From the NCBI RefSeq assembly GCF_000154725.1, contig NZ_DS544873.1, positions 1,503,432 through 1,567,431 of the forward strand: 64,000 nt of DNA, written 5' to 3'. Below, in pieces: positions 19,377 through 33,136 of the stretch. Source of the stretch: Kordia algicida OT-1. GTDB lineage: Bacteria; Bacteroidota; Bacteroidia; Flavobacteriales; Flavobacteriaceae. The translations under genes were made by a program, and so were the position numbers. The notes beneath the pieces are model-generated. The model did no database searches, had not been told where the DNA came from, and saw only the letters and a program-made list of their open reading frames with translations. Every line of letters starts with the position of its first letter. Within the stretch, counting starts at the first letter, position 1.

Positions 19377-21209
19377 TTAAAGAGTTAATATTTCTTCTTT
19401 CCTATTTAGCAATTCCAAAATATCATAATAGTGATTTAGAATCTGTTCTCTTTCCCACTTGTGTTCTTTGTTCGTTTTATTATACATGACCAGTTGTTTA
19501 GCTGGTAAATTACTCCTGTAAAACTTCCCTTTTATATCTGCTTTTCCTTTGGGAGACTCATCATTCATTTTAGAATTTCCACTTTTACTCACTAAACATA
19601 AATTCCCTAAACAATCCAATACATCTTCGTTTTCATAATTTGAATGAGATTGTGGTAAATGATGTTCCACAGAATTTCGATACTTAAACTCAAAGTGAAA
19701 TTTTTCTTTGTTCTCTGTCCAATATAAGTAATCTATAAAATTAAACAAGAAATGTGGAGTTCTCGTACCTTCACTATAAGGTAGTTTTTTTATTAGTTTA
19801 TCATAATTTCTGTTTTCATTAAATAGTTGAATTACTAAACTATTTAATTTGTTTAAATAATCTTTAGGCTTAATTTCTAAATCATCAGCATCATCAAACC
19901 AACTTAAAATTTCTTGTAAATAATTTTTATATTTCTTTGTTCTAAAGGTAACTTGCAACATTGAAAGACACTTAATTATAGGTTCTTGTAAGTCATCAAA
20001 ACTGTTTATGTATTGCAGTCTTCTGTATTTTTTTTTATTTTTTTTATAATAATACATTTTTGGTTTTTGCAAAATCCATTTCGTATTATCTTCAGATTTT
20101 TCGTCTTCAATAACCTTTACTATAAAACGATCAAAAACAACTCTGTAATACAACAGAAAATCAATAAACGTTAGTGGATCTATTTCATCTTCTAAATCTT
20201 CAAACCATTTTAATAACTCATCGCCATTTAAAGGAACATCTTTTTCTTTATCTAAAAAATAAAGCTTTAAAACATGCATTAAAAAGTTAGGGAAATCAAT
20301 GATTGCTTCAAAATCTTCATTTTTATCAAATTTTAAATTGTCTTCTTCTTCCAAGATAGATGTACCAGAAAGAATAGCACTAATACTAATTGAGCCATCA
20401 TCCTCTTTATTTTCTAATTCTTCTTCATCTGTTTCAAAATCATAACCATTGTAATTTTTCCCAAAAAAACAGGTTCTATCTTTTTTAAATAAACGCTGTA
20501 TAGGTGTATTCATTTGTGAACAAGCATCCCATATTTTAGCAAATTGAACAGAGCTCCTTTTTTTGCCCTGTATCTTATCTAAAAGCCTTGCCTTTACTAT
20601 TTCGTGTTCTTCTAGTTGTTCTCCTCTATTATTCATCACTTCAAAGTAATGAGCAACATCAATATCGGAAGGAATTTCAACTTTTACCAATTGCACTTGA
20701 TTGAAAAAATAGTCTTTAAAACCTTTTATAGCATCTTTTGTTAAGTAATCATTAAAGCGAAGTATTTCTGTAGGATCTTTTGCTTTTAAGTCTACGTTTT
20801 CAATATATTCAATGGCCTCATTAAAATGTGATACCAAATGATTTGTGGTCGTCGTTGCGACTGCTCCTCTTTGGTAATATGTACTTAAAAAACTTTCTAC
20901 TTCTGGTCTAGAATCGTATTGTAGCTTAGAGGTTTTAAGTGTTACATCTAATTTTTTTGCTATTAGTGAAAGTGTCGTTAACCGTTGTTGCCCATCTATT
21001 ACTTCAAAGTCTCCATTTTTTCTTTTTAAAACAACTAATGTTCCTATAAAGTAAAAGCTTTCTGGATTTTTAGAGTAGTTCTCATAAATGTCTCTGAGCA
21101 ATTGGTGTATTTCATTATCTGTCCAAGCATAGTTTCTTTGATATAAAGGCACTATGTAGTTGGACTGAAATATTTCGCGAATACTTTTATTTAAATCTTT
21201 TACCTCCAT
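19377..21209 (-). CDS. DUF262 + DUF1524 (GmrSD-like) protein
   Basis: 610 residues. The N-terminal DUF262 (ParB-like nuclease/NTPase fold, as in GmrS) shows IVPLYQRNYAWTDNEI (19-34) and DGQQRLTTLSL starting at Asp72. The C-terminal HNH-like DUF1524 module (as in GmrD) shows VEHHLPQSHSNYENED and LGNLCLVSKSGNSKMNDESP at about 515-560. The middle is long and acidic (EEELENKEDDG). GmrSD-type proteins are type IV restriction enzymes against modified phage DNA; SspE and BrxU share this architecture. Last gene of the restriction island, 5 bp after a second DUF262 gene, so translated with it. Target modification is unknown. Confidence 0.85.
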   Translation of the reverse strand: MEVKDLNKSIREIFQSNYIVPLYQRNYAWTDNEIHQLLRDIYENYSKNPESFYFIGTLVVLKRKNGDFEVIDGQQRLTTLSLIAKKLDVTLKTSKLQYDSRPEVESFLSTYYQRGAVATTTTNHLVSHFNEAIEYIENVDLKAKDPTEILRFNDYLTKDAIKGFKDYFFNQVQLVKVEIPSDIDVAHYFEVMNNRGEQLEEHEIVKARLLDKIQGKKRSSVQFAKIWDACSQMNTPIQRLFKKDRTCFFGKNYNGYDFETDEEELENKEDDGSISISAILSGTSILEEEDNLKFDKNEDFEAIIDFPNFLMHVLKLYFLDKEKDVPLNGDELLKWFEDLEDEIDPLTFIDFLLYYRVVFDRFIVKVIEDEKSEDNTKWILQKPKMYYYKKNKKKYRRLQYINSFDDLQEPIIKCLSMLQVTFRTKKYKNYLQEILSWFDDADDLEIKPKDYLNKLNSLVIQLFNENRNYDKLIKKLPYSEGTRTPHFLFNFIDYLYWTENKEKFHFEFKYRNSVEHHLPQSHSNYENEDVLDCLGNLCLVSKSGNSKMNDESPKGKADIKGKFYRSNLPAKQLVMYNKTNKEHKWEREQILNHYYDILELLNRKEEILTL

Positions 21210-21214
21210 GACTG

Positions 21215-22651
21215 TTAAGATTTTAATTTTGAATAATCGATATCAACCTTAAATTCATCAAAAAAAGAAATTATAATATCTTCTACTTTTACACAAACAA
21301 TGTCTTTTTTTGCTAGTTCTGTTATGGGTCTTAATTCAAAATAGTTTTTACTTTGTGCTATGATTGAAAAAATTGCTGTATCTGAAGGATATTTTGCCAC
21401 AGCAGCATATTTTACTTGCTGTTTTTCTAAGCGCAAGCGATATACAACAGCGTATAGTTCTTTATAGTATTTATGTACACCTTTTTCACCGTATTTATCA
21501 AAAAGTAAGATAATTAGTGATTTATAAAGCTCTCTTAAATATTGGTCGCCTGTTCTATAACTATTTTTATAAAAACATTGTTTCTGATAAAAATTTTTAA
21601 ATTCTTTTAAAAAATAAGGAGTTGCTTTATGAATGAAAAGTTGCTTGTAAATCTCTACATAAGATTCTATATAGTCAAAAAAAGACTTCCCATTGATTAT
21701 GGGTTGATTGATAGAAACAAAATCGTTCACATTAGAAAGATGCTTTTGGTTAAAACGAGATTTTATGCCCTTTACTTGCACTTGTAATCCATTAAAATAG
21801 TTTAAAGCAACTGCATGTAGTAAATTGCTGTTGTGAAATGGATATTCCATTTCTTCCTTCACTTTAATGGTGTGTCCTTTAAATTCTGCTATTTCATTTT
21901 TACTAAAACCAAAAGCTGCTTGCTTTTTGCTCCAGATTCTAGTTCTATACAATTGCTCATTAAACAACTGTTTTAAAACATCTTGTGGTTTGTGTTTCGT
22001 ATTTAATGGATCGATTACAAATCGCGTCGCATTTTCCCAACGTCGATCACTTTCCATTTTATCTTCATTCGTAGCTTGCTCATCTTCCATAGCTCTAATA
22101 TGATAGGCTTTTAAAAGATTATAAGCTTCTAAGCTTTTACCACGACTGTTTTGCGAATCAAACATTTGAAAAGATTCTGATAGTTTGCTAACTCGTACTT
22201 CTACAAACTCACAAAACTTATTGATGTAGTTTAAAAAGTCTGCTTTTTCTTGTGCAATATTTTCTGCTAACCAATACACAATAAAATCATTATTTTTGAG
22301 AATGCATTTTTCAGAATCACTATGGTTAAATTTTAAATTTTCTGATAAAGTAATTGCCTGCTCAGATGCTAACTGACGTAAAATTAGTATTAATGTAGTA
22401 ATGCGTTGTTGTCCATCAATAATTTGAAAACCACTTTCTGGCTTTTTTTTATCTTCATACAGAATAACACTCCCAATTCTATAAGCACTTTTTACTTGTT
22501 TCCAACTCCCATAAATATCTTCTAATAGTTGCAGTACATTTTTTTCTGTCCAACGATAAGGGCGTTGAAAACCTGGTATTTGTAGGTTTTGACTCAATAC
22601 ATCAGTAACCTTCTTTATTTCTGCCTGTATTGTTTTTTCTTGTTTACTCAA
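21215..22651 (-). CDS. DUF262 protein without obvious HNH domain
   Basis: 478 residues. DUF262 motifs are QIPGFQRPYRWTEKNV (24-39) and IIDGQQRITTLILI (Asp79), then MFDSQNSRGKSLEAYNLLKA, typical of the family. The C-terminal half (about 230-478) is Lys/Tyr-rich and helical. I see no His-x-x-Pro/Asn HNH signature like the one at the end of its downstream neighbour, so this copy may act as the sensor/NTPase half or rely on a partner. Fourth from last in the island's reading order is the small gene upstream (47-bp gap). Confidence 0.8.
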   Translation of the reverse strand: MSKQEKTIQAEIKKVTDVLSQNLQIPGFQRPYRWTEKNVLQLLEDIYGSWKQVKSAYRIGSVILYEDKKKPESGFQIIDGQQRITTLILILRQLASEQAITLSENLKFNHSDSEKCILKNNDFIVYWLAENIAQEKADFLNYINKFCEFVEVRVSKLSESFQMFDSQNSRGKSLEAYNLLKAYHIRAMEDEQATNEDKMESDRRWENATRFVIDPLNTKHKPQDVLKQLFNEQLYRTRIWSKKQAAFGFSKNEIAEFKGHTIKVKEEMEYPFHNSNLLHAVALNYFNGLQVQVKGIKSRFNQKHLSNVNDFVSINQPIINGKSFFDYIESYVEIYKQLFIHKATPYFLKEFKNFYQKQCFYKNSYRTGDQYLRELYKSLIILLFDKYGEKGVHKYYKELYAVVYRLRLEKQQVKYAAVAKYPSDTAIFSIIAQSKNYFELRPITELAKKDIVCVKVEDIIISFFDEFKVDIDYSKLKS

Positions 22652-22697
22652 ACCTCAACTGTTTTTTTTTGAATGGTATATTGTTTTTTGAAACAGA

Positions 22698-22937
22698 TTA
22701 CATTGGATGAATAATAACTCGGCTATTATTAATTGCACTTAATGAAACTGACATCGTAGAAAGACAATTTGTAATAGCTTCTAATAATTCCTCTAAATTT
22801 TTAAATTTATCTGACACTAATAAGAAACAAACAAGACACTCGTTAGGACTGTTCCTGTTTAATAAGTTTAACCGAGTTTCATTAGCTAGGTTGCATTTTG
22901 CTAATTGGTCACGTACTTTTATTAATAATTCATCCAT
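22698..22937 (-). CDS. Small unknown protein in the restriction operon (79 aa)
   Basis: 79 residues starting MDELLIKVRDQLAKCNLA. Two helical halves surround CLVCFLLVSDKFKNLEELLE. It lies 11 bp after the hsdS stop and 47 bp before the DUF262 gene, on the same strand, which supports a real operon member. I do not recognise it. It could be a regulator, an adaptor for the DUF262 proteins, or an anti-restriction-like modulator. Confidence 0.55.
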   Translation of the reverse strand: MDELLIKVRDQLAKCNLANETRLNLLNRNSPNECLVCFLLVSDKFKNLEELLEAITNCLSTMSVSLSAINNSRVIIHPM

Positions 22938-22948
22938 AATTATAGCTC

Positions 22949-24610
22949 TTAACTTGTTTCAAAAACCTCCCGCAAACAACTCTGCATCAACTGCGTACTA
23001 TATGCTTGGCTTTGTTGTACTTCTTCTTCGAGTTTATCACATAACTCCATCAATGCATTTACTTTTGCTACGATGGCTTTTTGTTCTTCTAGTGGTGGAA
23101 GTGGAAATGCATATAACTTAACCTTATTTGCAGATAAATTTGGTTGTGCTGAACCGTTATCAAAACGTAATAGTTGTCTCTTCCCTTCAGGACTAATTAA
23201 AAACCGATAAATAAAACCAGAGGAATCTTGTATATAAGCCCTTATTATCATTAATGATGAAGCAATCGCGCCTTTCTTAAATGGTGAAACATAAGCTGTT
23301 TTACCAAATGTTGCACCACGTAGACAATACACTAAATCTCCATCCTGAATTTTACCCCCTCGTAGAATGTCGAATTTATCTTCAGTTATATAGTTCATCT
23401 TTGATTCCGACAATGTTCCGTCTGGATTTATATGCCCTGTATTTATCCATGCAACTCCTTCATCTACGTATTCAGATTTATTTGGATAGTTCTTACCTCT
23501 ATCACCATTAATGAAGGTTGCTAAATCTCCAAAATTTACCCAAACCCAACCTTCAGGCACTTCATACGGAATTTCATCTTTGGTAATTGGTGGTAAGACT
23601 TTTTCCTTTTTTATTTTTTTGGCTGCAATGAGTTGTGCTTTTTCTTCTTGAATTTGTTTAAGGAGTTGGCTGGCATCTTCTGTATCTGGATTATTTACTC
23701 GCCAATTTGCTGTGAGCTTTCCTTGTACGGCTAATTGTAAAACGGTTTCTCGTAACTTTTTAATGTTGGTGGTTTCATTAAAGAAACTTTTAAAATGTTC
23801 TTGTAAAAACTTCCATTCTTGGTTGGCGTTTTTGGTAGTGAGTTGATGTAATGCTGAGGTTACAAAATCTTCTTTTAAACCAATACGTTTTACCGTTAAT
23901 TGCTCTAATTGCTCTACTTCTTTAAACAGGGTTTCTACTACTCTTACGATTTCTTTTTGTTCTTCTAGTGGTGGTAGACAAAATGCTTTTAATTTTAATA
24001 AACTGTAATGACGTGCATAACCTTTATTAGATAAATCAAAAAAAGAAATATGTAAATAAAAAAACTGTGAATCAATACCATCATATGGGTTAAGTATTTT
24101 AGTCCCATCTGCCCCAATGATGAAATCAAAATCAATAAATTTAACTTGTCTTGTATGGTCTCCAAATACAACGACTGGTTTGGCTAATTTTAATAATTTA
24201 CTTTCATCATCACTATAACCATCTATTTTATTTTTGCCTTGTGAAACAATTGGATATTTACCTCTCTCATTATAATTTTTGGATTTGATTTGATTTGATT
24301 TCCCACCAATTGTATAATAAAACTCAGTTATGTTTTTTGAAATCCAAGTTTCAGGAATTTTAAAACTTACTTCTTCTTTTAAAAATTCCTTTTTAGCAAT
24401 TTCTTTCCTAGCAATTTTTGACTTAACTAAATCCTCTTTGTTTTTAATTATTTTTTCTAATAATTCTGAAGCAGGTTCAATATCAGGATTTTCTGCTCTC
24501 CAATTCGCAGTCAATTTTCCTTGTATTGCCAATTGTAAAATCAACCCTTTTAGTTCTTGAGCATTTTTAGGACGAATGGTTAGTTCTTTAAAATGTTGTA
24601 GTAGTTTCAT
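22949..24610 (-). CDS. hsdS: Type I restriction-modification specificity subunit HsdS
   Basis: 553 residues with two target-recognition domains. The central repeats are duplicated: LILQLAIQGKLTANWR (about 25-40) and TVLQLAVQGKLTANWR (about 290). Each TRD ends in LPPLEEQKEIV or LPPLEEQKAIV followed by a coiled-coil spacer. Each TRD reads one half of a bipartite DNA site and guides HsdM and HsdR. Both halves are full length. It follows hsdM after a 41-bp gap that contains a small hairpin. Confidence 0.95.
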   Translation of the reverse strand: MKLLQHFKELTIRPKNAQELKGLILQLAIQGKLTANWRAENPDIEPASELLEKIIKNKEDLVKSKIARKEIAKKEFLKEEVSFKIPETWISKNITEFYYTIGGKSNQIKSKNYNERGKYPIVSQGKNKIDGYSDDESKLLKLAKPVVVFGDHTRQVKFIDFDFIIGADGTKILNPYDGIDSQFFYLHISFFDLSNKGYARHYSLLKLKAFCLPPLEEQKEIVRVVETLFKEVEQLEQLTVKRIGLKEDFVTSALHQLTTKNANQEWKFLQEHFKSFFNETTNIKKLRETVLQLAVQGKLTANWRVNNPDTEDASQLLKQIQEEKAQLIAAKKIKKEKVLPPITKDEIPYEVPEGWVWVNFGDLATFINGDRGKNYPNKSEYVDEGVAWINTGHINPDGTLSESKMNYITEDKFDILRGGKIQDGDLVYCLRGATFGKTAYVSPFKKGAIASSLMIIRAYIQDSSGFIYRFLISPEGKRQLLRFDNGSAQPNLSANKVKLYAFPLPPLEEQKAIVAKVNALMELCDKLEEEVQQSQAYSTQLMQSCLREVFETS

Positions 24611-24619
24611 AGTTAATAG

Positions 24620-24639
24620 ATTCCTGCCTCCGCAGGAAT
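24620..24639. repeat. Small perfect hairpin between hsdM and hsdS
   Basis: ATTCCTGC, loop CTCC, GCAGGAAT: an 8-bp stem between the hsdM stop and the hsdS start. It could be a dispersed mini-repeat or could tune the HsdM:HsdS ratio; there is no T-run, so not a terminator. Confidence 0.55.
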
Positions 24640-24651
24640 GAAAAGGCGGTT

Positions 24652-26082
24652 TTACTTTAGAGCTTCAGTTAATACATTGATAATTTCGTCTTGTATGCTA
24701 GAAATTTTAGTTTCCGTAGTTCTGAATTTTTCTAATAGTATTTCTGGGCTTTCTAAAGTATCGGCTTCTTGATGTGGGTTTTTGATATCTAGGTTGTAAT
24801 TGCGTTTTTTAATCTCGTCTATAGAAACTTTCCAAGCAAATTTATTTTCTACACGTTGGTGCCACCATTTTTTTTCTACCTCAAATTCTTTAATGTTAAT
24901 TGGTTTGGTTTTGTTATAGCTTTTGGCACCTTTTGGGTATTGATGTTCGTAATACCAAACTTCTTTGGTGGGTGTGCCTTTTTCAAAAAACAACAAGTTG
25001 GTTTTTATACCTGTGTAAGGGTTAAATACGCCATTGGGTAAACGTACAATGGTATGCAGGTTGCATTTGTGTAACAATTCTTCTTTTAGGCGTGTTTTCA
25101 TGCCTTCGCCAAATAATGTACCATCTGGCAATACAATGGCACAACGTCCTTTGTCTTTTAAAAGCTTAATGATTAAGGCTAAGAATAAATCGGCAGTTTC
25201 TTTGGTTCTAAATTTTTTAGGGAAATTGGTTTCGGTACCATCTTCTTCAACTCCTCCAAAAGGTGGATTAGACAAAATAATATCAAGTTTGTCTTTGGCG
25301 CCCCAATCTGCATAAGGTTTGCTTAGTAAATTGTCTCTGCGTACTACTGGCAAATCAAAACCGTGCAACATTAAGTTGGTCGTACATAATAAGTGTGGCA
25401 ATGGTTTTTTCTCAATACCACGTATCGATTTTTGTAATACGTCTCTATCTTTTGGTGTTTTTACTTGATTACGGACTGCATCAATTGTACAGGTTAAGAA
25501 TCCACCTGTACCACATGCAGGATCTAGTACGCTTTCTCCTAGTTGCGGATTTACCATATCTACCATAAACTGTGTTACCGCTCTTGGTGTGTAATATTCC
25601 CCAGAAGAACCTGCCGATTGCAGGTCTTTTAGTATGGTTTCGTAGATATCGTTGAATAGATGACGTTCTGTAGTACTGTTAAAATCAATTTCATTAATCA
25701 CATTGATAACCTGACGAAACAGTGTTCCGTTTTTCATGTAGTTATAGGTATCTTCAAAAACCGAACGTATAATTTTTGCTTGTGGACTTATGGTAATATC
25801 CAACTCTTTTAAGGTAGGGAACAACTCGTTTTCTATAAACTCCATTAAGGGATCGCCTGTGAGTCCTTCATCGTCTGCTGCCCAGTTTTGCCATTTTAGG
25901 TGTTCTGGTATTGGCGACTCGTAATTGTCTATGGTGATTTCCCATTCTTCTTCTTTATCGGCAAATATTTTCATAAAAAGCATCCACACCATTTGCGAAA
26001 TGCGTTGTGCGTCACCATCGACTCCTGTGTCTTTACGCATGATATCGCGTATGCCTTTTATGTTGGTTGTAATGTTACTCAT
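24652..26082 (-). CDS. hsdM: Type I restriction-modification DNA methyltransferase HsdM
   Basis: 476 residues. N-terminal HsdM helical domain (IKGIRDIMRKDTGVDGDAQR) followed by the N6-adenine methylase core: SAM-binding VLDPACGTGGFL and catalytic NPPFGG (the NPPF/Y motif). GEYYTPRAVTQFMVDM is characteristic of the family. It methylates the site chosen by HsdS and so protects the host. It sits between a DUF262 gene (23 bp upstream) and hsdS. Confidence 0.97.
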   Translation of the reverse strand: MSNITTNIKGIRDIMRKDTGVDGDAQRISQMVWMLFMKIFADKEEEWEITIDNYESPIPEHLKWQNWAADDEGLTGDPLMEFIENELFPTLKELDITISPQAKIIRSVFEDTYNYMKNGTLFRQVINVINEIDFNSTTERHLFNDIYETILKDLQSAGSSGEYYTPRAVTQFMVDMVNPQLGESVLDPACGTGGFLTCTIDAVRNQVKTPKDRDVLQKSIRGIEKKPLPHLLCTTNLMLHGFDLPVVRRDNLLSKPYADWGAKDKLDIILSNPPFGGVEEDGTETNFPKKFRTKETADLFLALIIKLLKDKGRCAIVLPDGTLFGEGMKTRLKEELLHKCNLHTIVRLPNGVFNPYTGIKTNLLFFEKGTPTKEVWYYEHQYPKGAKSYNKTKPINIKEFEVEKKWWHQRVENKFAWKVSIDEIKKRNYNLDIKNPHQEADTLESPEILLEKFRTTETKISSIQDEIINVLTEALK

Positions 26083-26105
26083 GTATGGTTATTCTCTTTA
26101 TTTTT

Positions 26106-27746
26106 TTACTCTATATTTTCTTCAATAATTTCATTATCTAATTCAGAAAACTCACCTACTTTTACTTTTTCAATAATTTTGGGCAATATTGTTTTCGCTC
26201 TTTCATTAATAAACAATTCAAAGTTATTATTTTGTGCTGCTTCTAATGCTGCTAAAGAAATAAAATGACTCGCTAAATCTACTTCTAAATTTTGGTTTTG
26301 AGCTGCATATTCTGCTAAATAATCAGAAGGGAAATCATTAGATATTTTTCTATTCAATCTTCCAGAGATTAAGGCAAAATTTAATAGTGCATTTATTCCT
26401 TTAACGGTTGTGCCAAATTTATCTCTTAATGAATACGGAAAAAAATGATGATTTTCTTTTCCGTTTGATTTTGCAATATTTGATTTATCTAATGTTACTA
26501 AAATACTATTGTCAAAATCTTTAGGGTTTTCAAGAGCCATTAAACAAATAACACCATTTTTAATCACAGATTTTGTTTGCATATTTACTTTTGTAAGTTC
26601 TTTAATAGTTAAAGAAACTCCAAATACGTTTTCTTCAAGAATGTTTTGCGACAAATTGCTTATCCAATCTGCATCATCTTTCATTTTTGTTAAACTTGAA
26701 CTCGAAAAACGTGCTGAAAACGTAGCTGTCCAAAACCAATTTTCAATATAATTAAAATGATTTGTCGCAATACTTTTTTTACCAGACTTAAAATAATAAA
26801 ACTGCAAAATGGGAAGAAAGGCATTGTAAGGTAGATAACCTATAAATTTAACACCAAAAATTTTTACAAAATCAAGACTTAGCCTAATAGCCTCTGTTGT
26901 CTTTATCCAATATTCTTCACAAATTTCAGCTGTTAAATTTAACTGATTTTTATTTTTACAATCTCCAAAGGCATTTAGTGACAAGGACTGAATAAACACT
27001 TCATTTTCAACACCTCCAAATGCTTTTACATTGGGTTCTGAATTAAAGGTTTTAATCTTATCTCGAAGGTCAAAGCTTGGCGACCAAGCACTGGCATGGA
27101 CTAAATCGAATAGTGATAATCTTTTTCCTCCTTGATTTATTCTTTCAAAAATGGTAACGACTTCATCAAGTTCCATTTTTAAAGTTTTTATAATACTTAT
27201 GGGATAATCTGAAAATATTTGTTGGCAATCTCTCCAAACTTCACTGTATTTTGTTCCATTTTCTCTATCATGGATTGCGTAATCAGTTAAAATATTTCCA
27301 TATTCTTGAGTATGAAAAAGTTTCCAAGCAGGAATGTTATGACTTTCATTCTTTAATCTCGGAATATGAAATATTTTTTTTTCAACATTATAGCATATTG
27401 AAGAATAATCTGTTTTGTTGATTGTTTTACCTTTTAAAGCTACATAGAGTGACGTAATTCGTTGCTGACCGTCTAAAATAAAACTATAATAATTTGATTC
27501 TGGTTCTTCTGGTAAGTTTAAATCTTTAATTTCACGACAAAAGTTTTTATACTCTTTACCAGCTTCCCAAACAAAAAAAGAACCAATAGGATATTGGCTT
27601 TGAATACTGTTAAGAAGTTTTACTATTTTACTTCTTTCCCATACATAACCACGTTGAAACCTTGGAATTTTCATATTTCCATTTTCCAATTGGTTGAATA
27701 CCTTTTGTAAATTCCAATTATTTATTATTTCAATTCTTTGTTCCAT
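26106..27746 (-). CDS. DUF262 protein between hsdR and hsdM
   Basis: 546 residues. DUF262 motifs MKIPRFQRGYVWERSKIVKL (25-44) and ILDGQQRITSLYVALKGK (Asp92), then ERINQGGKRLSLFDLVHASA. The C-terminal block KENHHFFPYSLRDKFGTT and NFALISGRLNRKISNDFPSD (about 420-470) resembles a divergent HNH/DUF1524 module. Its start overlaps the hsdR stop by one base (TAATG), so translation is coupled to hsdR. That position argues for a functional link with the type I enzyme and not mere proximity. What it does there is unknown; DUF262 relatives act as modification-dependent nucleases. Confidence 0.82.
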   Translation of the reverse strand: MEQRIEIINNWNLQKVFNQLENGNMKIPRFQRGYVWERSKIVKLLNSIQSQYPIGSFFVWEAGKEYKNFCREIKDLNLPEEPESNYYSFILDGQQRITSLYVALKGKTINKTDYSSICYNVEKKIFHIPRLKNESHNIPAWKLFHTQEYGNILTDYAIHDRENGTKYSEVWRDCQQIFSDYPISIIKTLKMELDEVVTIFERINQGGKRLSLFDLVHASAWSPSFDLRDKIKTFNSEPNVKAFGGVENEVFIQSLSLNAFGDCKNKNQLNLTAEICEEYWIKTTEAIRLSLDFVKIFGVKFIGYLPYNAFLPILQFYYFKSGKKSIATNHFNYIENWFWTATFSARFSSSSLTKMKDDADWISNLSQNILEENVFGVSLTIKELTKVNMQTKSVIKNGVICLMALENPKDFDNSILVTLDKSNIAKSNGKENHHFFPYSLRDKFGTTVKGINALLNFALISGRLNRKISNDFPSDYLAEYAAQNQNLEVDLASHFISLAALEAAQNNNFELFINERAKTILPKIIEKVKVGEFSELDNEIIEENIE

Positions 27747-30118
27747 TAAGCAATATTATATATTTCGTTTTCTAGATCTTTAATGGCTTGGTCAAAATCT
27801 TTCTTTTTCCCAAAAGCGCGTACTAATTCTACAGCAGATCCTATTTGATTTAAAGGTTGAACTTTTAAAATAGCATTGTCTTCTATAGATGCAATACCTT
27901 CTTGTTCGTATTTATCTAACAAGCTATGTAAAACTTTTTGTGCTGTTTCGCTGTATTTGGCAAAATAGTTTCGCTTTCGAACATTGTTTGCTCGTTCTTG
28001 TCGCGTTAAAGCTGGTTGGTCAAAAGCAATATGACAGATGAGATCAAAATCATCCAAATCTCGCCCAACTTCTTCGCGAAGCGCTTCTAGTAATATACCA
28101 TGCTCTGCCAATTCTTTTATGAGTTCTTCTTTCTTTTCAGCATCGTTCCATTTTTGAATAAAATCATCAAGCGAAGCAAATTCTTTTCCCAAATTCTTTT
28201 TGGAGTAATCTTTTAACGATTCTGTGATCAGCTTGCCATCTTTTCCGTAATATTGAACACGTTCATTTACGACCGAAACAGGAATATCATTCACATAATA
28301 TTTTTTTATTTCTTCTTCCGTATCATCAATATCAATATTAGGTATTGTGGGTTTAAAATCATCTGGGTTTGTTGGTGATGCATCATCATCAGGTGTAGTT
28401 GTTTCTCCTTCATCTGGCGGCACTACGGATTCTCCAGGTGCTGGTTCGTAGATTTGCACAGGATTACCATCAAAATCGGGGCGTGCAAATATGTTTGTTG
28501 CCTTTCTAAAGTCCATAATCGTAAAAAACACTTTGCCTTCAGCTTCTCGTATTCGAGTTCCACGACCAATAATTTGTTTAAATTCTGTAACGGATTGTAT
28601 GTTAGATTCTAGTACAATAAACTTTACCATTTTGGTATCTATTCCGGTGGTCAACATTTTAGAAGTGGTTGCAATTACGGGAAACGTTTCTTCTACATCA
28701 GTAAAATTATCGAGTTCTTGTTTTCCAACTTCATCATCGCCTGTTATTTTTACACAATAGTTCCAATGTTTGGCAACTAAGTCTGCATTTTCATTTATTA
28801 AAGCTTGACGCATTCTGTTTGCATGATCGATATCAGTACAAAATACAATGGTTTTTGCAAAACGGTCTGTTGCTTTTAAATATTCGGTAATTTTCTTAGC
28901 TACAACTTCTGTACGTTCGTCAATTGCCAACGTCTTATCATAATCTTTTAAGTTATAAATGCGGTCTTTTACTTCATTTCCGTATTTATCCAACAATCCT
29001 TTAGTTGGTCGCCAACCATCATCAACGCTGGTTGTAATACGCACTACTTTATATGGCGCCAAAAAGCCATCATCAATTCCTTGTTTTAAAGAATACGTAT
29101 ACACAGGCTCTCCAAAATATTCCATATTGGAAACATCTTTGGTTTCTTTTGGTGTGGCTGTGAGTCCAATTTGGGTAGCCGAATTAAAATAGGTTAATAC
29201 ATCTCGCCAAGCTGACGCTTCTGAGGCGCTACCTCTATGACACTCATCTATAACTATTAGATCAAAAAAATCTTTGCTAAACTCTTTATACGCGTTTTTG
29301 TCTTCCTCATTTGAAGTCAATCCTTGATATAATGCAAAATAGATTTGATAGGACTTATCAATCTTCCTATTCTTGATAATATGCATGATGTCATTTCCGA
29401 AAGGAGAGAAATCGCCATTTCTTGTTTGTGTTAATAAAGCATTTCTATCTGCCAAAAACAAAATTCTTTTTTTAACTCCTGTTTTCCACAAACGCCAAAT
29501 AATATTGAAAGCTGTGTATGTTTTTCCTGTTCCCGTTGCCATGACCAACAGAATTTTATCCTGTCCTTTTGCTATAGCCTCTAAAGTTCTGTTTACAGCA
29601 TTTTGTTGGTAATAGCGTGGCGTCTTTCCGCTATCATCCGCATAATAATCTTTTGCTACTATTTCTTGTGCTTCAGACGTTTCAATCTTAGTATATTGTA
29701 AATACTTTTTCCATAAAGTTTCAGGTGAAGGAAAATTATCTAAGGAAATTTCTTGTTCTAATACGCCCGTTGTTTTGGTTTTATCATGAAACACAAAAGA
29801 ATCTCCATTGGAAGTAAAGACAAAAGGGATTTGTAAAATTTCTGAATATTCTAATGCTTGCTGCATTCCATGTCCCACAGGCTTTTTGTTATCTTTTGCC
29901 TCAATAATAGCAATTGGAATGTTTGATTTATAATACAGAATGTAATCGGCTCTTTTTCGTTGTCCTCTAGTATGTAAGTTTCCTTGAACAATGATTCGCC
30001 CATCTGTAAAAAATACTTCTTCTCTCACTTGTGTTCGCATATTCCATCCTGACTTTTGCAATGCAGGATTGATAAACTTGGTACAAATGTCTCGTTCTGA
30101 AAGTTGTTTTTTATTCAA
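27746..30118 (-). CDS. hsdR: Type I restriction-modification endonuclease/translocase HsdR
   Basis: 790 residues starting at TTG (no closer ATG until residue 27, inside the conserved N-terminus SERDICTKFINPAL). PD-(D/E)xK nuclease: Asp58, then AIIEAKDNKK with Glu73 and Lys75, then GHGMQQALEYSEIL. SF2 motor: MATGTGKTYTAF, VIDECHRGS, GLTATPKE, QIIGRGTRIREA. A Pro/Asp/Thr-rich linker at about 560-605 precedes the C-terminal domain that binds HsdM/S. It cuts unmodified DNA after translocation. First gene of the leftward island. Confidence 0.96.
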   Translation of the reverse strand: MNKKQLSERDICTKFINPALQKSGWNMRTQVREEVFFTDGRIIVQGNLHTRGQRKRADYILYYKSNIPIAIIEAKDNKKPVGHGMQQALEYSEILQIPFVFTSNGDSFVFHDKTKTTGVLEQEISLDNFPSPETLWKKYLQYTKIETSEAQEIVAKDYYADDSGKTPRYYQQNAVNRTLEAIAKGQDKILLVMATGTGKTYTAFNIIWRLWKTGVKKRILFLADRNALLTQTRNGDFSPFGNDIMHIIKNRKIDKSYQIYFALYQGLTSNEEDKNAYKEFSKDFFDLIVIDECHRGSASEASAWRDVLTYFNSATQIGLTATPKETKDVSNMEYFGEPVYTYSLKQGIDDGFLAPYKVVRITTSVDDGWRPTKGLLDKYGNEVKDRIYNLKDYDKTLAIDERTEVVAKKITEYLKATDRFAKTIVFCTDIDHANRMRQALINENADLVAKHWNYCVKITGDDEVGKQELDNFTDVEETFPVIATTSKMLTTGIDTKMVKFIVLESNIQSVTEFKQIIGRGTRIREAEGKVFFTIMDFRKATNIFARPDFDGNPVQIYEPAPGESVVPPDEGETTTPDDDASPTNPDDFKPTIPNIDIDDTEEEIKKYYVNDIPVSVVNERVQYYGKDGKLITESLKDYSKKNLGKEFASLDDFIQKWNDAEKKEELIKELAEHGILLEALREEVGRDLDDFDLICHIAFDQPALTRQERANNVRKRNYFAKYSETAQKVLHSLLDKYEQEGIASIEDNAILKVQPLNQIGSAVELVRAFGKKKDFDQAIKDLENEIYNIA

Positions 30119-30436: not shown

Positions 30437-30748
30437 AACAGCTCCCGAAACCGTCTCGCAGCAATGCAGGAAGCTTTCGGGAAAACCCGAAACGTTCTCG
30501 CAGACGTGCAACAAGCTTTCGGGAAGTCCCGAAACGTTCTCGCAGAGGTGCAACAAGCTTTCGGGAAAGCCCGAAACGTTCTCGCAGACCTGCAACAAGC
30601 TTTCGGGGAAGTACAAAACCGTCTCGCAGTGCTGCAACAAGCTTTTCGACACGTTGGAAACGTTCTCGCAGAGGTGCAGGAAGCTTTCAAACGCATTTTA
30701 TTTTGTCTCGCAGTGCTGCAACAAGCTTTCAAACAAAAAATTATTTAA
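30437..30748. repeat. 42-bp tandem repeat array, 7 units
   Basis: Seven consecutive units of exactly 42 bp start with CTCGCAG at about 30455. The core is CTCGCAGaggTGCAACAAGC followed by TTTCGGGAAagcCCGAAACGTT. The first three units carry a TTTCGGG/CCCGAAA hairpin; later units decay toward the 3' side. Because 42 is divisible by three and the unit has no stop, several frames on both strands stay open. On the plus strand the unit reads as a 14-residue amphipathic helix (QQAFGKARNVLAEV, two heptads). G+C is clearly higher than in the flanks. No ribosome-binding site or normal start is seen, so I list it as a repeat and not as a gene. Confidence 0.85.
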
Positions 30749-32346: not shown

Positions 32347-33054
32347 TTATTCACTTAAAAAAATACTCACAACATACCAGAATAATAACATCAAAGAAGC
32401 AAACAGTCCTAAAGAAGCGGCTACATATTGATCTTCTTCGTATTTGTGAATCATGTTTGAGGTTTGGTATAAGATAGAAGCTGATGCTAATACGACCATA
32501 CCAACGCTAAACCATAATCCTAATTCAAAACCTCCAAAGAAGGTTCCGGCAACGATCAATCCTAACGCTAAGAAACTTCCAATGGTTATGATTGATTTTA
32601 GAAATGAAAAATCTTTTTTAGTGGTAAAAGCAACCATTGACAACCCAGCGAATAAAGCCAACGTCATGATGGCTGCTTGGGTTAAAATATCACTTTCTCT
32701 TGCTCCTGATACTTGTATCGCAATGTAAATAAGTGGTACAAAAATTAAGGCTTCAAGTATAACATATGCAAACAACATAGCATGATGTACCGTTTTGTCT
32801 TTTGATTTTATAGCGACAGTTTCTACATAATTTGTAGCAAACATAAATATCCCTAACACTACCAACCATGTCCAACCACCTTGCATCATTTGCATTCCTG
32901 TTTCAACAATAAATGGTACTTGCAAAAATAAGTATTCTACTACGATAAATAATAATACTGCAAAGGCTAAATAAGTATATGATTTTTTGTAAAAAGCCAC
33001 TCTTGCGTCTTCTCCTAAAGCGCTTACGGGCAATGTTTGTCTAAATTGTTCCAT
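32347..33054 (-). CDS. Bax inhibitor-1 / YccA family membrane protein
   Basis: About 235 residues from the ATG at 33054 (MEQFRQTLPVSALGEDARVA); nine upstream codons at 33081 are less likely to be translated. Seven membrane helices are visible, with the family-type SFLKSIITIGSFLALGLIVA and the final LFASLMLLFWYVVSIFLSE. The family (YbhL/YccA/TMBIM) forms pH-sensitive calcium-leak channels or modulates FtsH. Monocistronic. Confidence 0.88.
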   Translation of the reverse strand: MEQFRQTLPVSALGEDARVAFYKKSYTYLAFAVLLFIVVEYLFLQVPFIVETGMQMMQGGWTWLVVLGIFMFATNYVETVAIKSKDKTVHHAMLFAYVILEALIFVPLIYIAIQVSGARESDILTQAAIMTLALFAGLSMVAFTTKKDFSFLKSIITIGSFLALGLIVAGTFFGGFELGLWFSVGMVVLASASILYQTSNMIHKYEEDQYVAASLGLFASLMLLFWYVVSIFLSE

Positions 33055-33136
33055 GTTTTTCGGTTTTTTTAATAAAATCAAAAGTACTAATTTCCTTTTT
33101 AACTCTGCAATTGGAATCCCTTAAATGTATGTTAAT

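What the first reader, a model, noticed from the sequence alone, without database searches (positions are those of the whole stretch)
19377..30118. Type I restriction system interleaved with three different DUF262 (GmrSD-like) genes
The order hsdR-DUF262-hsdM-hsdS-small gene-DUF262-DUF262/DUF1524 is compact: the first DUF262 overlaps hsdR by one base (TAATG), and the last two are 5 bp apart. One enzyme set cuts unmodified DNA and DUF262 families typically cut modified DNA, so the locus may close both escape routes for phages, or the DUF262 proteins may read HsdM methylation. The three DUF262 proteins differ widely in sequence and length, so they are not recent duplicates.
Basis: partly seen in the sequence, partly recalled or inferred. 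Interest (0 to 1): 0.78.

Follow-up and report, generated by a model that had tools for sequence, protein, structure and literature searches.

The report
Restriction operon with three add-on genes
A flavobacterium carries a classic DNA-restriction operon into which three further restriction-type genes have been slotted, probably so that viruses that hide their DNA by chemical modification are also attacked; the kind of arrangement is already known, but the tidy slot it uses and the stacking of two different add-ons are of some interest.

Summary
It is a type I (EcoAI-family) system carrying two separate GmrSD-type add-ons. A is a single-protein, BrxU-like enzyme. B (DUF262+DUF7834, no nuclease motif) and C (DUF262+His-Me nuclease) form a pair with the TgvAB layout (Vizzarro 2024). 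The order is conserved: 8 of 10 close relatives of A lie between hsdR and hsdM. But that junction is a general cargo slot (filled in 17 of 22 related loci, by nine recognisable kinds of gene plus three without a known domain), and the TAATG overlap also joins hsdR directly to hsdM in empty loci. A's tree conflicts with HsdR's, HsdS differs between carriers, and one 72% relative has no hsd neighbours, so I favour modular, independently acting add-ons over DUF262 proteins that read HsdM methylation. The locus sits in a chromosomal defence hotspot of the genus. Type I loci with embedded GmrSD genes are published (RloF, TgvAB); what seems new is the stacking of both add-on types and the seamless slot. 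No activity was tested.

The parts
27746..30118 (-). hsdR, EcoAI-family type I restriction subunit (790 aa, TTG start)
   Evidence: NF046051 1172.6 bits, cut-off 550; IIEAKD, ATGTGKT, DECHR motifs
26106..27746 (-). DUF262-A: single-protein BrxU-like GmrSD-family protein (546 aa) in the hsdR|hsdM slot
   Evidence: GmrSD_N 111.8 bits; BrxU 7p9k phmmer E 8.4e-17, Foldseek E 2.1e-14 prob 1.00; DGQQR at 92, HHFFP at 433, H433, H434, N456, N465 invariant in 24 sequences; Pfam GmrSD_C does not hit
24652..26082 (-). hsdM, type I adenine methyltransferase (476 aa)
   Evidence: N6_Mtase + HsdM_N; DPACGTGGF, NPPFGG
22949..24610 (-). hsdS, specificity subunit with two target-recognition stretches (553 aa)
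   Evidence: Methylase_S, 2 stretches
22698..22937 (-). 79-aa ORF without recognised relatives; may or may not be a gene
   Evidence: no Pfam, PADLOC or NCBIfam hit; found in 1 of 99 genomes, the window's own; no tblastn match in the loci held
21215..22651 (-). DUF262-B: GmrSD_N + DUF7834, no His-Me nuclease motif found (478 aa); TgvA-like partner
   Evidence: PF03235 107.2 bits, PF25202 157.1 bits; QRPY, DGQQR, FDSQN; next to a C-type gene in 9 of 9 Flavobacteriaceae genomes with DUF7834, in pieces in one
19377..21209 (-). DUF262-C: GmrSD_N + GmrSD_C (His-Me) (610 aa); TgvB-like nuclease partner
   Evidence: PF03235 116.3 bits, PF07510 30.3 bits; EHHLPQ at 515, GNLCL..NS with N at 536
27744..27748 (-). 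TAATG stop/start overlap between hsdR and DUF262-A, the same as the hsdR/hsdM overlap of empty loci
   Evidence: junctions of window, L022, L023, L024, L164
17148..17696 (-). NUDIX gene, one edge of the chromosomal hotspot
   Evidence: match in 10 of 11 genomes of the genus
32347..33081 (-). gene of unchecked product, other edge of the hotspot
   Evidence: match in 11 of 11 genomes of the genus

Best explanation
The locus is a layered, modular restriction cluster. Layer 1: an EcoAI-type type I system (HsdRMS) methylates its own sites and cuts DNA that lacks the mark. Layer 2: DUF262-A, a BrxU/GmrSD-like single protein (nucleotide-driven sensor domain plus His-Me nuclease), cuts DNA carrying foreign modifications. 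Layer 3: DUF262-B and -C work together like TgvA and TgvB, B as nuclease-less partner and C as modification-dependent nuclease. A sits in the hsdR|hsdM stop/start overlap, a cargo slot that keeps the genes translationally linked, and B-C sits behind hsdS. The add-ons act independently of HsdM specificity; co-location serves shared expression and joint transfer and gives complementary cover against unmodified and modified phages. Shown here: gene content, intact motifs, conserved slot, B-C pairing, incongruent histories, hotspot. Inferred: nuclease activity, modified-DNA targeting, co-expression, benefit.
For: Slot census: of 36 HsdR places over the NF046051 cut-off in 299 Flavobacteriaceae genomes (window included), 22 have hsdR followed by hsdM; the junction is filled in 17 and empty in 5: A (2), DUF262-AlbA_2 fusion, AAA+RloB, FRG, AlbA_2, HNH (3), AAA/SMC (3), PDDEXK_4, Fic-like_C, no known domain (3). 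A clade: of 10 relatives at 62% identity or more, 8 have hsdR before and hsdM after, 1 is cut by the contig edge with hsdM after, 1 has no hsd match; of 70 kept relatives at 33% or less, 2. With at least 1.5 kb on both sides: 6 of 7 against 2 of 48. A's data reject the HsdR topology (p-AU 0.009) and HsdR's data reject A's (p-AU 1e-79), 8 taxa, while R and M identities correlate at 0.99. HsdS only 44-46% identical to those of the two nearest carriers, where R and M are 83-91%. A resembles BrxU. B-C pair; R-M-S-B-C on a Vibrio aerogenes plasmid, M-S-B-C-IS-R on an E. coli plasmid; no annotated type I gene within 7 kb on plasmids of Pseudoalteromonas, V. parahaemolyticus, Aliarcobacter and Picosynechococcus. 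TgvAB in its type I operon protects against T-even phages whether or not HsdR can cut (PMC11411939, section 8).
Against: No activity, expression or substrate data. Pfam's nuclease model does not hit A; its nuclease motif rests on alignment. A's near-confinement to the slot could mean a working partnership with HsdR. The AF2 model of A is middling (pLDDT 72.5, TM to BrxU about 0.4); that of B is poor (pLDDT 52). B and C were not aligned to VC1767/VC1766 themselves. In the TgvAB study tgvAB alone protected 10- to 100-fold less than the whole five-gene cluster against several phages; the authors blame expression balance (PMC11411939, section 8), but a real contribution of the type I genes is not excluded. 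Whether phages of this host carry modified DNA is unknown.
Confidence: 0.68

Rival explanations
1. Guardian model: DUF262-A is a latent nuclease held by the type I complex (through its hsdR linkage) and set free when a phage inhibitor blocks HsdRMS, as PrrC is held by EcoprrI.
For: PrrC is embedded in a type IC operon and sequestered by it (PMC3874165 passages; PMC12707154 passages); A's close clade is almost confined to the hsdR|hsdM slot (8 of 10); other slot cargo includes AAA+RloB and AAA/SMC genes.
Against: A has been swapped between HsdR backbones; one 72% relative has no hsd match within 8 kb; the slot holds many unrelated families; BrxU acts independently of its BREX neighbours (PMC12707154 passages) and TgvAB without HsdR cutting (PMC11411939, section 8).
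Confidence: 0.12
2. Methylation reader: the DUF262 proteins use HsdM's adenine methylation as self or target mark, in the manner of SspE with phosphorothioate.
For: SspE is a DUF262-DUF1524 enzyme tied to its own modification system (PMC12707154 passages); all three genes lie in a methylase operon.
Against: A occurs with HsdM proteins only 52-54% identical to the window's and with HsdS proteins that differ; A relatives and B-C genes also occur with no type I gene seen nearby.
Confidence: 0.07
3. Plain hitch-hiking: defence genes pile up in a hotspot and inside an operon because insertions there are tolerated; no functional link, some may be inactive.
For: The NUDIX-to-32347 interval carries different defence sets in four congeners; slot contents vary widely.
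Against: Tight junctions and intact motifs in the genes tested; the A clade is retained in one slot across genera; B-C pairing in 9 of 9 genomes.
Confidence: 0.13

Closest known systems
TgvAB inside the type I operon of Vibrio pathogenicity island 2 (Vizzarro et al. 2024, PMC11411939)
   Same: Two neighbouring DUF262 genes, only the second with DUF1524, within a type I locus; B-C match this layout, and B-C relatives also occur in the order M-S-B-C-R (L052, L056, L057 and an E. coli plasmid).
   Different: Here hsdR comes first, B-C follows hsdS at the operon end, and a third, BrxU-like DUF262 gene sits between hsdR and hsdM. Direct sequence identity to VC1767/VC1766 not tested.
BrxU / HEC-05 (Picton et al. 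2021, PMC8565348; PDB 7p9k)
   Same: Single-protein GmrSD-family enzyme beside a methylation-based defence system; best match of A by sequence and fold.
   Different: BrxU lies with BREX; A lies in a type I operon slot. Identity is low (20% in the Foldseek alignment).
RloF and other R-linked ORFs of Campylobacter jejuni hsd loci (Miller 2005, as cited in PMC4619093; itself not seen)
   Same: DUF262 and other genes lodged inside type I operons; type I domains are the defence genes most frequent near GmrSD homologues (PMC4619093 passages).
   Different: There between hsdS and hsdR; here at the hsdR|hsdM overlap of EcoAI-type operons.
PrrC / EcoprrI
   Same: Accessory nuclease embedded in a type I operon (PMC3874165 passages).
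   Different: PrrC is an anticodon nuclease silenced by the type I enzyme; nothing here shows such silencing.

Membership tests
Type I R-M, EcoAI (IB) family | HsdR, HsdM and HsdS with family-level HsdR score and intact motifs | tested here: met
Type I R-M, EcoAI (IB) family | Active methylation and restriction | not testable with these tools
   no methylation or phage data held
GmrSD family (type IV) | DUF262 with QR, DGQQR and FxxxN motifs | tested here: met
   A, B, C: PF03235 over cut-off; motifs in the alignments and scan
GmrSD family (type IV) | C-terminal DUF1524 / His-Me nuclease in A | tested here: inconclusive
   Pfam GmrSD_C no hit up to E 5; H433, H434, N456, N465 invariant in 24 sequences; best fold match BrxU
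GmrSD family (type IV) | C-terminal DUF1524 / His-Me nuclease in B | tested here: not met
   PF25202 instead; no nuclease motif in the alignment
GmrSD family (type IV) | C-terminal DUF1524 / His-Me nuclease in C | tested here: met
   PF07510 30.3 bits, cut-off 23; EHHLPQ...GNLCL..NS
GmrSD family (type IV) | Cuts modified DNA only | not testable with these tools
   needs enzyme or phage assay
TgvAB | Two adjacent DUF262 genes, second with DUF1524, inside or beside a type I locus | tested here: met
   B-C; relatives
TgvAB | Sequence homology to VC1767 and VC1766 | not tested
   I did not obtain those sequences
TgvAB | Both proteins needed together | not testable with these tools
   pairing in 9 of 9 genomes is only indirect support
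BrxU / HEC-05 | Best sequence and fold match among solved GmrSD enzymes | tested here: met
   PADLOC HEC-05 E 5.8e-41, but PDC-M55C is slightly better at 6.7e-42
PrrC-like guardian | Silenced by the linked type I enzyme, freed by its inhibitor | not testable with these tools
   needs expression with and without HsdR and an inhibitor

The most novel reading that the evidence does not exclude
The hsdR/hsdM stop-start overlap of EcoAI-type operons is a dedicated docking slot in which defence genes are exchanged seamlessly between backbones without disturbing translation, and residents such as DUF262-A work as back-ups or guards of the type I enzyme they are co-translated with; type I operons would then be carriers of interchangeable immune cargo, here stacked three layers deep.
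Probability: 0.2. Interest if true: 0.72.

Novelty: new variant of a known kind. Interest (0 to 1): 0.45.

Why it matters
If true, one operon gives cover against unmodified DNA and, through two separate enzymes, against modified DNA, and type I operons serve as swap-in chassis for other defences. Junction-guided mining of the hsdR|hsdM slot (nine recognisable cargo kinds plus three genes without a known domain in one bacterial family) would be a cheap way to find new defence genes, and the DUF262-A clade offers a direct test of whether such cargo merely rides along or depends on its host enzyme.

Tried and rejected
Three recent duplicates: rejected, best local identities 23-35%. DUF262 genes scattered in the genome: rejected, exactly three found and all here. 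TAATG as a sign of hsdR-DUF262 partnership: rejected, the same overlap joins hsdR to hsdM in empty loci L022, L023, L024 and in L164, and hsdR to other cargo in L017, L025, L027 and L030; the other two empty loci, L026 and L028, have gaps of 0 and 1 bp, and in L020 and L036 the join reads otherwise. Own promoters for the DUF262 genes: the sigma-70 scan found 48 sites against 49.5 in shuffles, and a Bacteroidetes-type pattern (recalled) found none in the locus (9 in the window, 5.6 expected); uninformative. Terminators: 5 against 5.8. RNA families: none at gathering score in 15000-36000. The 79-aa ORF: no relative in the 98 other genomes searched. DUF262-B structure: too poor to use, so no fold search was made with it. 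Phage collection: 10 records with A relatives, 2 covering 80% of the query; no help.

Limits: one search scored at most three candidates of each genome; one search kept 80 of 177 relatives; 22 of the 70 distant ones had less than 1.5 kb on a side or no callable ORF. Junction letters were printed for 20 loci only, window included. The tree test has 8 taxa. If L104 and L125, whose slot protein is a different DUF262 subfamily, are included, the correlation of A with R falls from 0.75 to 0.36 and with M from 0.90 to 0.45. In five further congeners the two hotspot edges lie on different contigs; the stretches opened round the NUDIX gene (L165-L169, L166 only 3 kb) gave no match to the window's hsd or DUF262 proteins, though L167 has an ORF with a DGxQR motif. 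Neighbour calls used the window's own proteins as queries and can miss distant type I genes, as L056, L057 and L053 showed before they were scanned with Pfam.
Full report
What is there. The window lies on a 5.03 Mb single-contig genome. Its family is Flavobacteriaceae by inference: genome G127 of the same family holds A's relative on a contig of 27,141 bases, the length of the Flavobacterium limi contig found (L069). The genus is unnamed. All seven ORFs are on the minus strand in the order hsdR, DUF262-A, hsdM, hsdS, a 79-aa ORF, DUF262-B, DUF262-C. HsdR is an EcoAI-family subunit (1172.6 bits, cut-off 550), HsdM and HsdS match their Pfam families, and the motifs looked for are intact. By Pfam A carries GmrSD_N only; B GmrSD_N plus DUF7834; C GmrSD_N plus GmrSD_C. 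These three are the only PF03235 matches in the genome.

A. By sequence A's only match (E up to 1) among solved structures is BrxU (7p9k, E 8.4e-17). Its AF2 model (24 sequences, pLDDT 72.5) has BrxU as best Foldseek match (E 2.1e-14, probability 1.00, TM about 0.4), followed by 9jfl of a phosphorothioate-sensing system. Pfam's nuclease model does not hit, but H433, H434, N456 and N465 are invariant in 24 sequences. I read A as a single-chain GmrSD-type enzyme.

B and C. B has the sensor domain but no nuclease motif; C has both. Nine of 299 genomes of the family have DUF7834, window included. In all nine a B-type gene is followed directly by a C-type gene, though in L054 both are in pieces. 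Type I genes lie in the neighbourhood in seven of the nine: the window, L050 (M-S-R-B-C), L051 (R-B-C-M-S), L052, L056 and L057 (M-S-B-C-R), and L053 (an HsdR-type gene upstream). L055 has a KAP NTPase instead, and L054 a 1172-aa neighbour without a family. Of six plasmid hits opened out of 884 records, Vibrio aerogenes has EcoAI-type R-M-S-B-C, like the window without A, E. coli has M-S-B-C-IS-R, and four have no annotated type I gene within 7 kb, one of these with the C gene in pieces (PLSDB gene tables are incomplete). This is the TgvAB layout (PMC11411939, abstract and sections 5, 8, 9, 10 read), where both proteins are needed and act on T-even phages whether or not HsdR can cut. Against full independence, tgvAB alone was 10- to 100-fold weaker than the whole cluster against several phages; the authors suggest unbalanced expression.

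The slot. I fetched all 35 non-window HsdR places over the NF046051 cut-off in 299 genomes. Twenty-one have hsdM downstream of hsdR, 12 have it upstream, 2 show no hsdM. With the window that makes 22 R-to-M loci: 17 have one or two genes between hsdR and hsdM, 5 do not. Cargo: A (window, L029); a DUF262-AlbA_2 fusion (L018); AAA+RloB (L015); FRG (L016); AlbA_2 (L020); HNH (L025, L027, L030); AAA/SMC (L031, L033, L034); PDDEXK_4 (L032); Fic-like_C (L036); no family (L017, L019, L021). In L022, L023, L024 and the congener locus L164, hsdR's stop and hsdM's start share TAATG; in L017, L025, L027 and L030 the same TAATG joins hsdR to other cargo; in the window, L064, L065 and L068 it joins hsdR to A. 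The other A loci printed have gaps of 0 (L072), 1 (L063), 47 (L069) and 416 bp (L070, where a further 138-aa ORF stands between).

The A clade. A scan of a collection of 84,980 genomes gave 10 relatives at 62-84% identity and 70 kept ones at 33% or less. Of the 10, 8 have hsdR before and hsdM after (L063, L064, L065, L066, L068, L069, L070, L072; L069 and L029 appear to be the same contig), L071 starts inside A with hsdM after, and L067 has no hsd match within 8 kb and reads DGQRR instead of DGQQR. Of the 70 distant ones only L104 and L125 have the order; both are DUF262-AlbA_2 fusions. Counting only loci with at least 1.5 kb on both sides, it is 6 of 7 against 2 of 48; 9 of those 48 have any HsdR or HsdM match. 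Carriers include Flavobacterium, Tenacibaculum, Marinoscillum and Bacteroidota MAGs.

History. R and M identities correlate at 0.99 over 7 loci; A with R at 0.75 and A with M at 0.90 over 8 each, falling to 0.36 and 0.45 when L104 and L125 are added. A's alignment rejects the HsdR tree (p-AU 0.009) and HsdR's rejects A's (p-AU 1e-79), 8 taxa. L065 shows it: its HsdR is nearer L069/L070 (72-74%) than the window (59%), but its A is nearer the window (72%) than L069/L070 (65-66%). HsdS of the two nearest carriers is 44-46% identical to the window's. Behind hsdS, L063 has an AAA ATPase and L064 a reverse transcriptase. The window's R/A/M are 85/82/91% identical to those of Tenacibaculum L064, but R and M only 77/75% to congener L164 at the same chromosomal site: I infer that the block has travelled between genera.

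The hotspot. The NUDIX gene and the gene at 32347 have matches in 10 of 11 and 11 of 11 genomes of the genus. In the four congeners where both lie on one contig (L160, L161, L162+L163, L164), the interval holds different defence content: two further type I systems with other HsdR types (L160; L161, whose HsdR scores 128 bits against the window's), KAP and DUF262-HNH genes (L162; L163 was not scanned), and an EcoAI-type R-M-S with empty slot followed by an AAA ATPase and two other DUF262 genes (L164). Three of the 11 genomes carry DUF262 genes in this interval: the window's own, G300 and G306. In five other congeners the edges lie on different contigs and no hsd or DUF262 match was seen beside the NUDIX gene; one lacks a NUDIX match at the threshold.

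Mechanism. Shown: gene content, motifs, slot, pairing, exchange, hotspot. Inferred from BrxU (PMC8565348, passages) and TgvAB: A and B-C recognise and cut modified DNA, so that phages that evade HsdRMS by modification are caught, with layers acting independently. Evidence against a methylation reader: different HsdM and HsdS partners, and relatives with none seen. Left open: a guard role like PrrC (PMC3874165, PMC12707154, passages), since A is so faithful to the slot.

Literature. DUF262/GmrSD genes near or inside type I loci are established: PMC4619093 (passages) found type I domains the most frequent defence neighbours of GmrSD homologues and cites RloF; PMC11411939 demonstrates TgvAB. The search listings showed no paper whose title or abstract start describes an hsdR|hsdM cargo slot of EcoAI-type operons or a type I locus carrying both a BrxU-like and a TgvAB-like add-on; I did not open most of those papers, and most subscription papers are not held, so this is weak evidence of novelty.

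Verdict. A real, conserved and well-preserved example of a known kind, with an unusual stacking of two add-on types and a neat, general cargo slot. Interest 0.45.

Noticed in passing
window 30443-30688: Array of about six 42-bp units upstream of hsdR; a core pattern occurs 12 times in the genome in three clusters, and similar sequence lies in the same hotspot of L163 and L164.
   Followed up: partly
window about 24618-24640: Palindrome ATTCCTGCGGAGGCAGGAAT between hsdM and hsdS; the pattern matches at 10 places in the genome, reversed-pattern control 0: a dispersed REP-like element inside the operon.
   Followed up: partly
window 22698-22937: 79-aa ORF between hsdS and DUF262-B with no relative in 98 other genomes and no family hit.
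   Followed up: yes
L018 9339-11480, L104 and L125 7956-10079, L059 525-2651: DUF262 fused to a Schlafen/AlbA_2 domain; L018, L104 and L125 sit in the hsdR|hsdM slot.
   Followed up: partly
L067 8001-9668: A relative (72%) without hsd neighbours in a Candidatus Desantisbacteria MAG, with DGQRR in place of DGQQR.
   Followed up: partly
plasmid collection: 884 plasmid records hold a DUF262-B relative, 848 of them Klebsiella; only six hits were opened, none from Klebsiella.
   Followed up: no
L064 8286-9890: Reverse transcriptase gene (RVT_1) behind hsdS in the Tenacibaculum locus that carries hsdR-A-hsdM.
   Followed up: no
L017 10994-11656, L019 6176-6610, L021 10905-11468, L070 3804-4220: Slot cargo of 138-220 aa without any Pfam family: candidates for unknown defence genes.
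   Followed up: no
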